From IMG/VR virus record IMGVR_UViG_3300017917_001030, positions 1 to 64,000 of that record: a stretch of 64,000 bases of DNA. One strand, 5' to 3'. How positions within the stretch are numbered: the stretch's first letter is position 1; every line of letters starts with the position of its first letter. Positions 31,368-60,105 of this stretch are shown in pieces. Under the pieces are notes generated by a model. The model saw only the letters and a list, made by a program, of their open reading frames with translations, was not told the DNA's origin and made no database searches. The position numbers were made by a program, and so were the translations under genes. The DNA is from a virus.

Positions 31368-33079
31368 TAAGATTTACTAAAATTCGATGGAAGAACTTTC
31401 TTTCTACGGGTGGACAATTTACAGAGATTGAATTTACAAAGCATCCATCTACTCTTATTGTGGGGGAAAACGGTGCGGGTAAAAGTACTATTCTAGATGC
31501 TATTTGTTTTGCCCTATTCAACAAACCATTTAGAAATATCAATAAGCCTCAGCTTATGAATAGCATTAACGGCAAGCATCTTGTCGTTGAGGTTGAGTTT
31601 ACTATTGGCAAAAAAGATTATAAAATCATTCGAGGAATGAAGCCAGGTATATTTGAAATATACTGCGACGACAATCTAATGAACCAGGATGCTGCAGCAA
31701 GAGATTACCAAAAGTATCTTGAGGAAAGTATTCTTAAGTTAAACTATAAGTCTTTTACTCAGATTGTTATTCTCGGTTCAGCATCCTTTACGCCGTTCAT
31801 GCAGTTATCACTTGGACATAGACGTGAGATCATCGAGGATATTCTAGATATTCAAATCTTTACCGTCATGAATAGTTTGTTAAAGGACAAAGCTAATGAC
31901 ATTAAAGCCTCAATTACGGAGATTGAGAATAGTATTACTTTGGGTAAAGACAGAGTAAAGGTGCAACAACAGTATGTTGCTACACTCGAAACAGATAAAC
32001 AGAAAAAGATTGATGACACAAAGAGTCGTATTGAAGAAGTTAAGGCAGAAATCGCAGGCCTAAATGCAACCGTTGAAGAAGAAAAGAATATTTGTGATAC
32101 TTTGGAGCAATCTATAAATGATGCTGACGACAAGAGGACAAAGCGATCAGAACTTTCTAGTTTATTGAAGAAGCTAGGCGAAAAGATTAAGACGCAGGAA
32201 ACAAGCATTACGTTCTATGAGGAACACGATGTATGTCCTACATGCAATCAAAATATGGATGATGACCTTCGTACAACAGCTAAGGAAACACATAAGCATA
32301 AGATTGACGAAATCCAAACTGCTATACAAACTCTGACCGAAAAAATAACTGAGATTGATAATCGTTTAACAGAAATTTCTGATATAGAAGACAATATTAC
32401 AGACCATAAGAATAATGTAGTTCAATTACAATCTAAGGTAATTGCATCCCACACATATCTGCAGAAGCTTCAAAATGAGCTTGATTCTAATAATACAGAT
32501 ACTGCAAATATAGACGAAGAAAAGACAAAGCTAAAAACACTTGCTAAACAAGTTTTATCGCTTGCAGAAGACAAAAGTAAAATTACAGAACAAAAACATT
32601 ACCTGGATATTGCATCTGTACTACTAAAAGATACCGGTATTAAAACTAAGATTATTAAACAGTATCTACCTGTTATTAATAAATTAGTAAATAAATACTT
32701 GGCGGCAATGGATTTCTTTGTTCACTTTGAATTAGATGAGTCCTTTAATGAGACAATTAAATCTAGACATAGAGATGAATTTAGTTATGCCTCATTTAGT
32801 GAGGGTGAAAAGCAAAGAATTGATTTAGCATTATTGTTTACCTGGAGAACGATTGCTAAAATGAAGAATAGTGCAAGTACAAATCTATTGTTATTGGATG
32901 AAGTATTTGATTCTTCACTAGATGCCAACGGAACAGATTATGTTATGAATTTATTAGATACTATTGGTAATGACACTAACGTGTTTGTTATCTCGCATAA
33001 AGGCGACCAGTTATTTGATAAATTTAAGTCTGTTATTAAATTCCAAAAATATCAAAATTATAGTAGAATATCAACATGA
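31364..33079 (+). CDS. gp46: Recombination endonuclease subunit gp46 (Rad50/SbcC-like)
   Basis: 571 residues (T4 gp46 is 560). Walker A GENGAGKST (34-42), long coiled coil interrupted by a zinc hook CPTCNQN near residue 288, ABC signature FSEGEKQRIDLALLF and Walker B LLLLDEVFDSSLD. It is the ATPase partner of gp47. It overlaps the deformylase gene by 4 bases. Confidence 0.95.
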   Translation: MIRFTKIRWKNFLSTGGQFTEIEFTKHPSTLIVGENGAGKSTILDAICFALFNKPFRNINKPQLMNSINGKHLVVEVEFTIGKKDYKIIRGMKPGIFEIYCDDNLMNQDAAARDYQKYLEESILKLNYKSFTQIVILGSASFTPFMQLSLGHRREIIEDILDIQIFTVMNSLLKDKANDIKASITEIENSITLGKDRVKVQQQYVATLETDKQKKIDDTKSRIEEVKAEIAGLNATVEEEKNICDTLEQSINDADDKRTKRSELSSLLKKLGEKIKTQETSITFYEEHDVCPTCNQNMDDDLRTTAKETHKHKIDEIQTAIQTLTEKITEIDNRLTEISDIEDNITDHKNNVVQLQSKVIASHTYLQKLQNELDSNNTDTANIDEEKTKLKTLAKQVLSLAEDKSKITEQKHYLDIASVLLKDTGIKTKIIKQYLPVINKLVNKYLAAMDFFVHFELDESFNETIKSRHRDEFSYASFSEGEKQRIDLALLFTWRTIAKMKNSASTNLLLLDEVFDSSLDANGTDYVMNLLDTIGNDTNVFVISHKGDQLFDKFKSVIKFQKYQNYSRIST

Positions 33080-33645
33080 TTATTAGAAAAGACCAGCTTA
33101 ATTTAATTGAACCTGAAAGTGAATTATTGCAGCGTCCGCCTGCACTGTTTGACTTCGAAAAGGACGGTGCAGATGCCGAAATGATTTCGAATCTATTATT
33201 TGAGAAAATGAAACAACTAGGCGGGGCTGGGTTAAGTGCTAACCAAGTTGGTCTTGATATTAGAATGTTTGTTATGGGATTGGATAATATTAAAATTGCA
33301 GTATTTAATCCTGAGATTATTTCTTATTCAGAAGATACAGATCATTTTGATGAAGGTTGTTTATCTTATCCAGGATTAATGCTTAGAATTAAACGCCCTA
33401 AATCTATTAATGTTAGATATTATAATCAAAATAATGAGTTAATAGAAACTCCTGTAGAAGGATTAACTGCTAGAATATTCCAACATGAATATGACCACAT
33501 GATGGGACATAATTTTACAGAACGAGTTTCTAAATTAAAATTAGATTTTGCTAAAAAGAAATTTGAAAATAAAAAGAAAAAGATTATTAAAAAATACGCA
33601 GCTAAAACAATGATCGAGGCTTTAAATGACCATACAAATTCCTAA
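33076..33645 (+). CDS. def: Peptide deformylase
   Basis: 189 residues. The three deformylase motifs are complete: GAGLSANQVG (50-59), EGCLSYPG with metal-binding C95, and QHEYDHMMG with H137, E138 and H141. It removes the N-formyl group from new proteins. The Lys-rich C-terminal tail (KKFENKKKKIIKKY) is an addition. Phage deformylases are known from T4-like aquatic phages; this genome also encodes an initiator-type tRNA (58614-58688). It is coupled to gp46 upstream and overlaps the next gene by 20 bases. Confidence 0.95.
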   Translation: MIIRKDQLNLIEPESELLQRPPALFDFEKDGADAEMISNLLFEKMKQLGGAGLSANQVGLDIRMFVMGLDNIKIAVFNPEIISYSEDTDHFDEGCLSYPGLMLRIKRPKSINVRYYNQNNELIETPVEGLTARIFQHEYDHMMGHNFTERVSKLKLDFAKKKFENKKKKIIKKYAAKTMIEALNDHTNS

Positions 33646-56918: not shown

Positions 56919-56926
56919 TATAAATA
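56919..56926 (+). promoter_or_regulatory. Late-type promoter of the structured RNA region
   Basis: Exact TATAAATA five bases after the regA stop. A start about 13 bases downstream would begin the RNA near 56932, the base of the predicted fold. Confidence 0.6.
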
Positions 56927-56931
56927 ATTAT

Positions 56932-57117
56932 ATCCCCGGGATGGGAACTAGCAGTCCGAGGTTAAGGCTAGTAAATAATTTCTCGGGCCAATAAACCCTT
57001 ACCTTAGGGCTGTTAGATGTTACAGTAAAAATATCCGTGTAATTACACCTCCGACACGAAAGTTCGGACCAGTATAAGGTAAGCTGGGATTCTATGCCGT
57101 TAGGGTAGAATATTTTT
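56932..57117 (+). ncRNA. Candidate structured non-coding RNA
   Basis: About 186 bases without an ORF but dense in pairing. ATCCC (56932-56936) can pair with GGGAT (57086-57090). A first arm has CCCGGGA (56935-56941) with TCTCGGG (56981-56987) and inner ACTAGC (56947-56952) with GCTAGT (56967-56972). A second arm is closed by the 9-bp CTTACCTTA (56998-57006) / TAAGGTAAG (57075-57083). It holds CTGT/ACAG (57010/57022), GTGT-AATT-ACAC (57037-57048) and CCGA/TCGG with a GAAA tetraloop (57051-57067). The end looks like a terminator. No match to a class I know; a long 5' leader for the next gene is the alternative. The two 5' pairings partly exclude each other. Confidence 0.6.
57089..57117 (+). terminator. 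Terminator-like hairpin at the end of the structured region
   Basis: ATTCTA (57089-57094) / TAGAAT (57106-57111) with an inner CC/GG, followed by ATTTTT to 57117. AT-rich and therefore weaker than the gp23 and cobS terminators. Confidence 0.55.
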
Positions 57118-57143
57118 AAACTCGCTTATTTAAGGAGACTATT

Positions 57144-58202: not shown

Positions 58203-58498
58203 AAAAGAATGCTCCTGGACCAGTAATTTATCTTGACCCTAAAACAGGTCAGCCTGTATGTGATTCAGTAAAGTGTAAAGATAAATTCAATACAAGAAAA
58301 TATGATGTTAAAGAAACAAATTATAAATGGTCAGGTGGCCCAGTAACACATAAATTTTATTATTCGTTATGTGATGAATGTGGAAGGCAAAATATCACAA
58401 ATAAAGATAAAGCCCTTACAGGACAAAGCTTTAGGCGTGGTACTTTAAACAAAGGCGTAGATCCAGAAATTGAGGTAAATGATGGCAAAGAAAATTAA
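58199..58498 (+). CDS. Hypothetical protein with paired cysteines
   Basis: 99 residues. CDSVKC (Cys-X4-Cys) and CDECG (Cys-X2-Cys) 30-40 residues apart could form a zinc ribbon. Between them lies a basic, Tyr-rich segment (YKWSGGPVTHKFYYSL). Otherwise not recognised. It overlaps the following small gene by 17 bases. Confidence 0.6.
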   Translation: MKKNAPGPVIYLDPKTGQPVCDSVKCKDKFNTRKYDVKETNYKWSGGPVTHKFYYSLCDECGRQNITNKDKALTGQSFRRGTLNKGVDPEIEVNDGKEN

Positions 58499-58601
58499 AT
58501 CAGTTGTTAAACGTTCTAAACAGGGCGGCAACGCAAAGACATCTACAATGTCTAAGACAGAAAAACGATCCTACAAGAAATATCGAGGTCAAGGACGGTA
58601 A
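58482..58601 (+). CDS. Very small basic protein
   Basis: 39 residues, about one third Lys or Arg, ending KKYRGQGR. Starts MAKKIKSVVKRSKQGGNA inside the end of the upstream gene in another frame. Tiny proteins with this SYKKYRGQGR end are familiar in T4-like aquatic phages, which supports translation. A nucleic-acid-binding role is inferred from charge. It lies just before the tRNA. Confidence 0.6.
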   Translation: MAKKIKSVVKRSKQGGNAKTSTMSKTEKRSYKKYRGQGR

Positions 58602-58613
58602 TATATAATAAGC

Positions 58614-58688
58614 CGCGGGGTAGCGCAGAAGTAGAGCGCCGGGCTCATAATCCGGAGGTCGGAGGTGCGATTCCTTCCCCCGCAACCA
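58614..58688 (+). tRNA. tRNA-Met (CAT), initiator-type
   Basis: 75 bases with encoded CCA. The acceptor stem is CGCGGGG with CCCCGCA, so position 1 is C opposite A72: the mismatch that marks bacterial initiator tRNA. D arm GCGC...GCGC, anticodon arm CCGGG-CTCATAA-TCCGG (anticodon CAT), T arm GGAGG-TGCGATT-CCTTC. Two of the three G-C pairs typical of the initiator anticodon stem are kept and the third is G-T. It resembles E. coli tRNA-fMet closely in the acceptor and anticodon arms. The peptidase gene begins 6 bases later. Confidence 0.9.
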
Positions 58689-58694
58689 GTTAAA

Positions 58695-59411
58695 ATGAAG
58701 AAAATACTATTTACCCTTTTGGCGTTGTTCTATATGAGCAACGCCTTTTCTTTTAAGGTTACCGCTGAGAGTTGGCTTGTGGCTGACGGCGACGGTAAGA
58801 TTATTCAGAGCGAAAACGCAACTGAAGTGAGAGCCATTGCCAGTATAACTAAGCTTATGAATGCTATAGTTGTATTAGATGCAGAATTACCATTAGAAGA
58901 AAAGATTGGGCAGTTCACACGATTACAGTTGTTACAAATGTCGTTAGTACATTCAGATAACAATGCCGCGAAAAAGTTATGCGAAAGTTATCCTGGTGGC
59001 AATTATGCTTGTATTCGAGACATGAATAGAAAAGCACAAGCGTTAGGTATGGAAGATACTAAGTTTGTAGAAGCATCTGGACTAAGCCATATGAATGTTA
59101 GTACAGGGCAAGACTTAGTTAAATTAGTTCTAGCTGCTAAAGAATATCCGCTTATTGTAGAAGCGTCAAGAACATCGCAAATAAAAATCAAGACAAAGAA
59201 AAGTCTTCTTGTCTATAATAATACCAATCCTATAATTGGTAAAAGACATGAAGACTTTCTTGTTAGCAAAACTGGTTATAATAGAGCATCAGGTGGCAGT
59301 ATAGTTATGATGCTCGCAAAATCTAATGAACAACGAATTGTTGTGGTTCTTGGTAGTAAGACTACGAGAACTCGTATCCCAGAAGCAGAATTTATTGCGG
59401 CTGCCTATTAA
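58695..59411 (+). CDS. Exported D-Ala-D-Ala carboxypeptidase/endopeptidase-like protein (S11)
   Basis: 238 residues from ATG 58695 (the open frame upstream runs through the tRNA and is ruled out). N-terminal signal peptide MKKILFTLLALFYMSNAFS. Penicillin-binding active-site set: S50-I-T-K53, S87-D-N89 and K192-T-G194. The short single-domain form resembles PBP7-like endopeptidases that cut peptidoglycan cross-links. A role in lysis or wall remodelling after export is inferred. The 3' end overlaps the convergent desaturase by 20 bases. Confidence 0.9.
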   Translation: MKKILFTLLALFYMSNAFSFKVTAESWLVADGDGKIIQSENATEVRAIASITKLMNAIVVLDAELPLEEKIGQFTRLQLLQMSLVHSDNNAAKKLCESYPGGNYACIRDMNRKAQALGMEDTKFVEASGLSHMNVSTGQDLVKLVLAAKEYPLIVEASRTSQIKIKTKKSLLVYNNTNPIIGKRHEDFLVSKTGYNRASGGSIVMMLAKSNEQRIVVVLGSKTTRTRIPEAEFIAAAY

Positions 59412-60105
59412 GTTTTAATAGATGTAGTTTCTCAAAGAGCTTGATATACATCCACCCTATATCAATCTCAAACCAGCGCTTACTCAATCTAGAATTGCCT
59501 GGTTCTACGTGATGGTTATTGTGAAGTTCCTCACCACCAATAAGAATACCAAAAGGTATAATATTCCTTGAACTATCTTTAGTATCCTTATTACGGTACC
59601 CCAACCAGTGTCCGACTCCATTTATAACTCCTGCTGCCCAGAACGGTATCCAAGCTATTTGTACTAACCATACCAATAGTCCAATTGGTCCGAACAATAA
59701 TAAGTCGATGGCTAATAAACAATAAACGCCTAGCTTAGAATACTTACTGTATAGATTTTTCTCAAGCCAATCGTCAGGTGTACCTACACCATATGCATTG
59801 ACCATATCTTTATCTTTACTTGCTTTGGTATAAAGCAAAACACCTTTAAGTAAAACTGTCCAGTTGCCAAATACTTTTGGGCTATGTGGGTCGCCTTCAA
59901 CGTCTGTAAATCTATGGTGTTTACGATGTATGGCGACCCATTCTTTTGTAACCATTCCAGTAGTTAACCAAAGCCAGAATCGCATAAAGTGGGATAAAGC
60001 AGAACTAAACTCTATTCCTTTATGTGCCTGGCCTCGGTGTAAAAATACTGTTACGCAAATAATTGTTATGTGTGTAGTTATGAGTGTGTATAAAAGTTCT
60101 AGCAT
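59392..60105 (-). CDS. Membrane fatty-acid desaturase
   Basis: 237 residues, small for acyl desaturases. The three histidine boxes are complete: H23-RGQA-H28, H60-RK-H63-H64 and H195-NN-H198-H199. Hydrophobic segments lie at about 3-22, 41-51, 127-140 and 141-160. EWVAIHRKHHRFTDVEGDPHSP is typical of delta-9 acyl-CoA/lipid desaturases. It would change host membrane fluidity. First gene of the minus-strand block to be read last; it begins 1 base after the upstream stop. Confidence 0.92.
   Translation of the reverse strand: MLELLYTLITTHITIICVTVFLHRGQAHKGIEFSSALSHFMRFWLWLTTGMVTKEWVAIHRKHHRFTDVEGDPHSPKVFGNWTVLLKGVLLYTKASKDKDMVNAYGVGTPDDWLEKNLYSKYSKLGVYCLLAIDLLLFGPIGLLVWLVQIAWIPFWAAGVINGVGHWLGYRNKDTKDSSRNIIPFGILIGGEELHNNHHVEPGNSRLSKRWFEIDIGWMYIKLFEKLHLLKLNRQPQ

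What the first reader, a model, noticed from the sequence alone, without database searches (positions are those of the whole stretch)
58614..58688. Phage-encoded initiator-type tRNA with C1-A72 mismatch, together with a deformylase
The acceptor starts C opposite A72, the hallmark that lets formylase act and blocks elongation. The genome also encodes peptide deformylase (33076-33645). The phage may boost or take over translation initiation. The anticodon stem keeps GG/CC but has G-T at the third pair, so it may be a variant. Phage tRNAs read as Met are usually elongator or Ile-type.
Basis: seen in the sequence. Interest (0 to 1): 0.75.

Follow-up and report, generated by a model that had tools for sequence, protein, structure and literature searches.

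The report
Phage starter tRNA with rebuilt elbow
A virus of bacteria carries its own start-of-protein tRNA; such genes are already known from other viruses, but this one swaps two normally fixed letters at the corner of the molecule in a matched way that also occurs in many small uncultured bacteria and that I found no report of.

Summary
58614-58688 is a tRNA(CAT) with a C1·A72 mismatch, and a peptide deformylase lies at 33076-33645. The initiator reading is well supported. In 68 distinct relatives chosen without regard to the acceptor stem, pair 1-72 is formed in only 8, while pairs 2-71 to 7-66 are formed in 65-68. The phage also has a paired, elongator-type CAT tRNA and 30 further tRNAs; the whole set covers all 20 amino acids. 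The tRNA departs from the textbook initiator at C11-G24 and G31·U39.

Phage initiator tRNAs are not new (phage T5, a huge phage). The deformylase link is weak: relatives carry deformylase without tRNAs.

The surprise is the elbow. The near-universal G18-Ψ55 is replaced by A18/G55, and the two changes go together. Among 83 distinct viral initiator-type tRNAs selected on neither position, 16 have A18/G55, 65 have G18/U55, and none is A18/U55 or G18/G55. In Patescibacteria, 15 of 145 genomes have G55 initiators, 66 have U55, none has both. One Prevotella lineage differs from a sister at 18, 55 and 59 only. The searches listed found no description. I read it as an alternative tertiary pair; its benefit is unknown.

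The parts
58614..58688 (+). initiator-type tRNA(CAT), 75 nt, CCA encoded
   Evidence: ARAGORN; Rfam tRNA 54.4 bits
58614..58614 (+). C1, unpaired with A72
   Evidence: sequence; mismatch conserved in 60 of 68 distinct relatives
58684..58684 (+). A72, unpaired with C1
   Evidence: sequence
58624..58624 (+). C11, pairs with G24 at 58636 (elongator-type; initiators have R11:Y24)
   Evidence: ARAGORN drawing
58630..58630 (+). A18 in place of G18
   Evidence: D-loop AGAAGTA
58643..58643 (+). G31, wobble pair with U39 at 58651
   Evidence: sequence
58646..58648 (+). anticodon CAT
   Evidence: ARAGORN
58667..58667 (+). G55 in place of U55 (Psi55); C56 kept
   Evidence: T-loop TGCGATT
33076..33645 (+). 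peptide deformylase, PF01327; probably a lineage gene rather than a partner of the tRNA
   Evidence: Pfam E = 9e-36; core gene of pelagimyophages in PMC7029224
58695..59411 (+). next gene downstream, D-alanyl-D-alanine carboxypeptidase (PF00768); ATG six bases after the CCA. Context only.

Best explanation
It is a phage-encoded initiator-type tRNA with a rebuilt elbow. Inferred path: the host charges it with methionine through the CAU anticodon; the host formylase accepts it because 1-72 is unpaired and G2-C71, C3-G70, G4-C69 and A73 are present; it enters the P site and supplements or replaces host tRNAfMet, while the phage's other 31 tRNAs serve elongation. In the elbow, G18-Psi55 is replaced by a matched A18/G55 pair with G19-C56 kept, so the tRNA cannot carry Psi55 or a methylated G18. 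Shown: the sequence features, the conserved 1-72 mismatch, and the tight coupling of positions 18 and 55 in phages and bacteria. Inferred: charging, formylation, P-site use and a direct A18.G55 contact. Why the swap is kept is not known; relaxed constraint in initiators is my first guess.
For: 1-72 paired in 8 of 68 distinct relatives against 65-68 of 68 for pairs 2-71 to 7-66; 1-72 paired in 1066 of 1100 non-CAT viral tRNAs and in 68 of 70 CAT tRNAs without the G2-C71/C3-G70 signature. Formylase determinants as listed in PMC9976931 (passages). Separate elongator-type CAT tRNA in the phage. Coupling of 18 and 55: 16 A18/G55, 65 G18/U55, 1 G18/C55, 1 U55 with neither motif, of 83 distinct; G55 in 117 of 117 tRNAs selected on A18; 15 against 66 of 145 Patescibacteria genomes, none with both; near-identical pairs that differ at both positions (L036/L037; G147/G449).
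Against: Two textbook initiator features are not met: R11:Y24 and a full set of three G-C pairs (G31.U39). No expression, charging or formylation data. Host unknown. Relatives with paired 1-72 exist (8 of 68). A few tRNAs break the 18-55 coupling: L240, L324 and L333 have G18 with G55; 8 A18 without G55 and 2 G55 without A18 among 1117 non-CAT viral tRNAs, six of the eight being tRNA-Ile(tat) that I judge misparsed.
Confidence: 0.8

Rival explanations
1. Elongator or Ile-type tRNA: the tRNA reads internal AUG as Met, or AUA as Ile after lysidine modification of C34, and the mismatch is drift.
For: CAT anticodon; elongator-type C11-G24.
Against: The mismatch is kept through different letters (CA 31, AA 19, TT 6, TC 3, GA 1 of 68 distinct). 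The phage has tRNA-Ile(gat), tRNA-Ile(tat) and another CAT tRNA with a normal acceptor.
Confidence: 0.08
2. Defence evader: an initiator tRNA that replaces a host tRNAfMet cut or modified during infection (VapC-type tRNases cut tRNAfMet in the anticodon arm), with changed anticodon stem and elbow making it resistant. This adds a purpose to the best explanation rather than excluding it.
For: Phage tRNAs with anticodon-loop changes are proposed to escape tRNases (PMC10264068, passages). Pair 31-39 is changed from G-C in 35 of 61 viral initiator-type tRNAs that are not host-like and in 0 of 22 host-like ones.
Against: The anticodon loop itself (CTCATAA) is unchanged, but the pattern required it. 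Changed 31-39 pairs are also common in Patescibacteria initiators, so they are not phage-specific. The same paper says phages generally avoided tRNA-fMet in the case it examined.
Confidence: 0.2
3. The A18/G55 state is neutral drift within a phage tRNA gene that is not used (decaying gene).
For: G12-A23 mismatch in the D-stem; several divergent T-loops among relatives.
Against: Acceptor and stem pairing is kept in relatives through compensating letters, and the 18-55 coupling is seen in single-copy bacterial initiators that must work.
Confidence: 0.07

Closest known systems
Phage T5 tRNAfM (AY543070, 32428-32505)
   Same: annotated phage initiator tRNA; unpaired 1-72 (U.U); member of a tRNA array with separate Met and Ile2 CAT tRNAs
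   Different: T5 has G18/U55; different acceptor letters
Brevundimonas phage vB_BpoS-Gurke tRNA-Met (ON529850, 153326-153402)
   Same: about 90% identical over 93% of the query; C1.U72 mismatch, A18 and G55
   Different: jumbo phage of another lineage; longer D-loop; C73; annotated only as tRNA-Met
Initiator tRNAs of part of the Patescibacteria
   Same: A18/G55 with the initiator acceptor
   Different: cellular; mostly keep R11:Y24 or have U11-A24; CCA often not encoded
E. coli tRNAfMet (recalled sequence)
   Same: acceptor stem, A73, CAU loop
   Different: A11-U24, G31-C39, G18 and Psi55
Initiator-type tRNAs with G18/U55 in large phage arrays (e.g. L030, L054, L075)
   Same: C1.A72, G2-C71, C3-G70, phage arrays with elongator CAT tRNAs
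   Different: canonical elbow

Membership tests
bacterial initiator tRNA (tRNAfMet) | CAU anticodon | tested here: met
bacterial initiator tRNA (tRNAfMet) | unpaired 1-72 (main formylase determinant) | tested here: met
   C1.A72; unpaired in 60 of 68 distinct relatives
bacterial initiator tRNA (tRNAfMet) | G2-C71, C3-G70, G4-C69, A73 | tested here: met
   sequence; determinants from PMC9976931
bacterial initiator tRNA (tRNAfMet) | R11:Y24 in the D-stem (secondary determinant) | tested here: not met
   C11-G24. R11:Y24 (AT, GC or AC) in 32 of 61 viral initiator-type tRNAs that are not host-like
bacterial initiator tRNA (tRNAfMet) | three consecutive G-C pairs 29-31:39-41 | tested here: not met
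   third pair is G.U. PMC4611024 (passages) calls the feature universal, but 14 of 22 host-like distinct sequences here have A29-U41, so it is not strict
bacterial initiator tRNA (tRNAfMet) | charging with Met, formylation, P-site use | not testable with these tools
   needs biochemistry
canonical tRNA elbow | G18 with U55 (Psi55) | tested here: not met
   A18, G55
canonical tRNA elbow | G19 with C56 | tested here: met
   G at 58631, C at 58668
Ile-accepting tRNA(CAU), lysidine type | lysidine at C34, Ile charging | not testable with these tools
   normally has a paired 1-72 (recalled; T5 Ile2 is G-C paired); here 1-72 is unpaired

The most novel reading that the evidence does not exclude
A18.G55 is a second, self-consistent tRNA elbow used preferentially in initiators by part of the Patescibacteria and by many phages. 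It makes an initiator that cannot be pseudouridylated at 55 or methylated at G18, and it marks the initiator apart from elongators, so that a phage can run initiation on a tRNA that host elbow-reading enzymes or nucleases do not recognise.
Probability: 0.25. Interest if true: 0.8.

Novelty: new variant of a known kind. Interest (0 to 1): 0.58.

Why it matters
The contact between G18 and Psi55 is described as a conserved part of the elbow, and Psi55 as universally conserved (PMC4810234, passages). A natural, repeatedly evolved replacement that is enriched in initiators gives a direct handle on what the elbow pair is for and why initiators can change it. It also shows that initiator tRNAs in phages are common and are usually listed simply as tRNA-Met. 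A cultured phage (Gurke, host Brevundimonas pondensis LVF1) carries a close relative with the same swap, so tests are possible.

Tried and rejected
Rejected: a special pairing of tRNA and deformylase, since relatives have deformylase without tRNAs. Rejected: that this is the phage's only tRNA, as the window alone suggests; the rest of the record has 31 more. Rejected: A18/G55 as strictly initiator-specific, since 20 non-CAT viral tRNAs and one bacterial tRNA-Cys have it. Tried: loss of TruB as the cause; TruB was found in 8 of 15 G55 genomes and 11 of 15 U55 genomes (15 of the 66 U55 genomes were given to the call), Fisher p 0.45, no support. Tried: ribosomal protein S21 in the phage, not found in this record. 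Tried: related annotated phages by DNA, no match; the exact first 25 bases of the tRNA in viral contigs, no match.

Literature: nine searches of the held library, of which searches were aimed at the elbow or at Patescibacteria tRNAs, listed no paper that by its title, or by the passages I then searched, describes A18 with G55. Most subscription journals are missing. I recall, from no call, suppressor-tRNA library work on T-loop/D-loop combinations that should be checked first.

Position 18 was assigned by a rule (GG, otherwise AG, in the D-loop after its second base). Searches selected on A18 or on G55; only, with 41, and searches are free of a choice on position 18 and 55 together. The non-CAT set comes partly (587 of 1117) from contigs chosen for a CAT tRNA with G55, and weak T-arms were dropped before that count (1399 usable distinct tRNAs kept; one search had 1487 distinct in the same loci before dropping). 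The host-like group is defined by a pattern that includes GG, so its G18 is by definition and only its U55 is a result. In Bacteroidota and Pseudomonadota the one G55 genome is the chosen centre. Fisher values ignore relatedness of sequences.

Full report
What is there. The window is part of a 130,602-base virus record. It is T4-like: it has a RegA-type translational regulator, tail sheath, terminase, head scaffold and major head protein families, and a major head protein 63.7% identical to that of Methylophilales phage Melnitz and 61.6-62.4% to those of Pelagibacter phages. Its host is not known. At 58614-58688 there is one tRNA with anticodon CAT. It lies between small open frames and a D-alanyl-D-alanine carboxypeptidase gene whose ATG, by reading, begins six bases after the CCA.

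Is it an initiator? The acceptor stem equals, as I recall it, that of E. coli tRNAfMet. To test whether the mismatch is kept by selection I searched viral contigs for the body of the tRNA and left the acceptor free (118 stretches; one tRNA was cut by a contig end). The 117 usable tRNAs (68 distinct) have 1-72 as CA, AA, TT, TC or GA in 60 distinct cases and paired in 8 (7 T-A, 1 G-C), whereas pairs 2-71 to 7-66 are formed in 65, 65, 67, 68, 68 and 68 of 68. By contrast 1-72 is paired in 1066 of 1100 non-CAT viral tRNAs with encoded CCA and in 68 of 70 CAT tRNAs that lack the G2-C71/C3-G70 signature. The mismatch, not its letters, is conserved. The formylase determinants listed in PMC9976931 (passages) are met in the acceptor stem; R11:Y24 is not. 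The third anticodon-stem pair is G.U. Change at this pair is common in viral initiator-type tRNAs that are not host-like: 31-39 is G-C in 26 of 61, T-G 12, A-T 10, G-T 4, C-G 4, T-A 3, other 2.

Context. The record holds 32 tRNAs, covering 20 amino acids, with a second CAT tRNA of elongator type. The initiator-type gene lies about 17 kb from the array. Phage initiator tRNAs are known: T5 has an annotated one, and a wastewater huge phage has two tRNA genes for formylmethionine (PMC10747093, passages). The eLife paper on evasion says phages generally avoided tRNA-fMet in the case it examined (PMC10264068, passages). Deformylase is in the window, but it is described as present in all pelagimyophages, of which HTVC008M has no tRNA (PMC7029224, passages). 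So the two need not be partners.

The elbow. The D-loop reads A14 G15 A16 A18 G19 U20 A21 and the T-loop U54 G55 C56 G57 A58 U59 U60. Reviews describe the G18-Psi55 contact as conserved (PMC4810234; PMC7609411; passages). Among viral tRNAs chosen only by the initiator acceptor and anticodon loop, 83 distinct sequences were compared. The 22 host-like ones all have U55 and have GG by the definition of that group. Of the other 61, 43 are G18/U55, 16 are A18/G55, 1 has U55 without a recognisable GG or AG, and 1 is G18/C55; none is A18/U55 or G18/G55. In the body-selected set, which required A18 but not G55, G55 is found in 117 of 117. In 1117 non-CAT viral tRNAs the table is 20 A18/G55, 8 A18 without G55, 2 G55 without A18, 1087 neither; six of the eight exceptions are tRNA-Ile(tat) with a D-arm that I judge misparsed. 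Two phage tRNAs on contigs with the same neighbouring tRNA-Arg and tRNA-Leu genes, L036 and L037, differ at four positions of the part compared, two of which are 18 and 55.

Bacteria. Most are titled as Patescibacteria lineages; others are titled Prevotella, Muribaculaceae, Bacteroidales, Cytophagales, Chloroflexi, Chthoniobacter, Acholeplasmataceae, Polyangiaceae, Paenihalocynthiibacter, or just bacterium. By the rule 111 of 118 have AG; 4 more (L244, L267, L296, L300) end AGGA, which is A18 by position; 3 have G18 (L240, L324, L333). In 145 genomes of the phylum of G001 (locus L238, titled Patescibacteria), 15 have a G55 initiator, all with A18 as read by eye; 66 have a U55 initiator (68 matches listed), all with GG as read by eye; none has both; 64 match neither pattern. 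In Bacteroidota 68 of 118 genomes match and only the centre, G147, has G55; in Pseudomonadota 66 of 120 match and only the centre, G148, has G55. In the family of G147 (a genome titled Prevotella), 25 of 59 genomes match, 24 are G18/U55, and G147 differs from G449 only at 18, 55 and 59 of the part matched. In genome G001, of 46 tRNAs 44 are G18/U55, 1 is G18/C55, and the initiator alone is A18/G55. In genome G125, 39 tRNAs were recognised of 40 matches: 36 G18/U55, 1 G18/C55, and the initiator and tRNA-Cys A18/G55.

How it most likely works. The tRNA is charged by the host MetRS, formylated and used at the P site; these steps are inferred. A18 and G55 most likely replace G18-Psi55 by a contact with hydrogen-bond donors and acceptors exchanged, and G55-C56-R57-A58 has the form GNRA, a turn that resembles the U-turn of the T-loop (recalled structural knowledge, not tested here). 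The consequence that needs no assumption is that position 55 cannot be pseudouridine. Whether that matters is open: TruB was found in 8 of 15 G55 and 11 of 15 U55 genomes. The swap is commoner in viral initiators than in other tRNAs on the same set of contigs: 16 of 61 distinct initiator-type tRNAs that are not host-like against 3 of 379 non-CAT tRNAs. That suggests either relaxed constraint, because initiators skip EF-Tu delivery and the A site, or selection for a mark of the initiator. I cannot choose between them.

Verdict. The initiator claim is probably right and, as a kind of gene, already known. The link to deformylase is weak.

Noticed in passing
L122:11424-11497 and L122:12137-12211 (genome 75424-75497 and 76137-76211): tRNA-Ile(gat) and tRNA-Asp of the same phage have A54 and U58 in place of U54 and A58 in the T-loop. 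Across 1117 non-CAT viral tRNAs the two change together: 30 A54/U58, 14 A54 without U58, 3 U58 without A54.
   Followed up: partly
L122:11424-17290 and L123:378-1564 (genome 75424-84464): 31 tRNAs which with the initiator cover all 20 amino acids in a 130.6 kb T4-like phage; for comparison HTVC008M is listed with 0 tRNAs in PMC7029224.
   Followed up: partly
56925-57140: About 200 bases without an open frame of 60 codons after the RegA gene, preceded by a TATAAATA motif; predicted fold -58.5 kcal/mol, z -1.7, no Rfam match. Possibly a structured RNA; weak evidence.
   Followed up: partly
58482-58601: A 39-codon frame rich in Lys and Arg that ends 12 bases before the tRNA; read by eye, not tested.
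   Followed up: no
59392-60105: Fatty acid desaturase (PF00487) on the minus strand next to the carboxypeptidase gene.
   Followed up: no
L345 and L063: A contig titled Cytophagales MAG (146,658 bases) and an IMG/VR viral contig of the same length carry the same A18/G55 initiator-type tRNA, so the MAG contig is probably viral.
   Followed up: no
L030, L032, L069, L089, L112: Phage tRNA arrays that also hold a predicted tmRNA next to or near the initiator-type tRNA.
   Followed up: no
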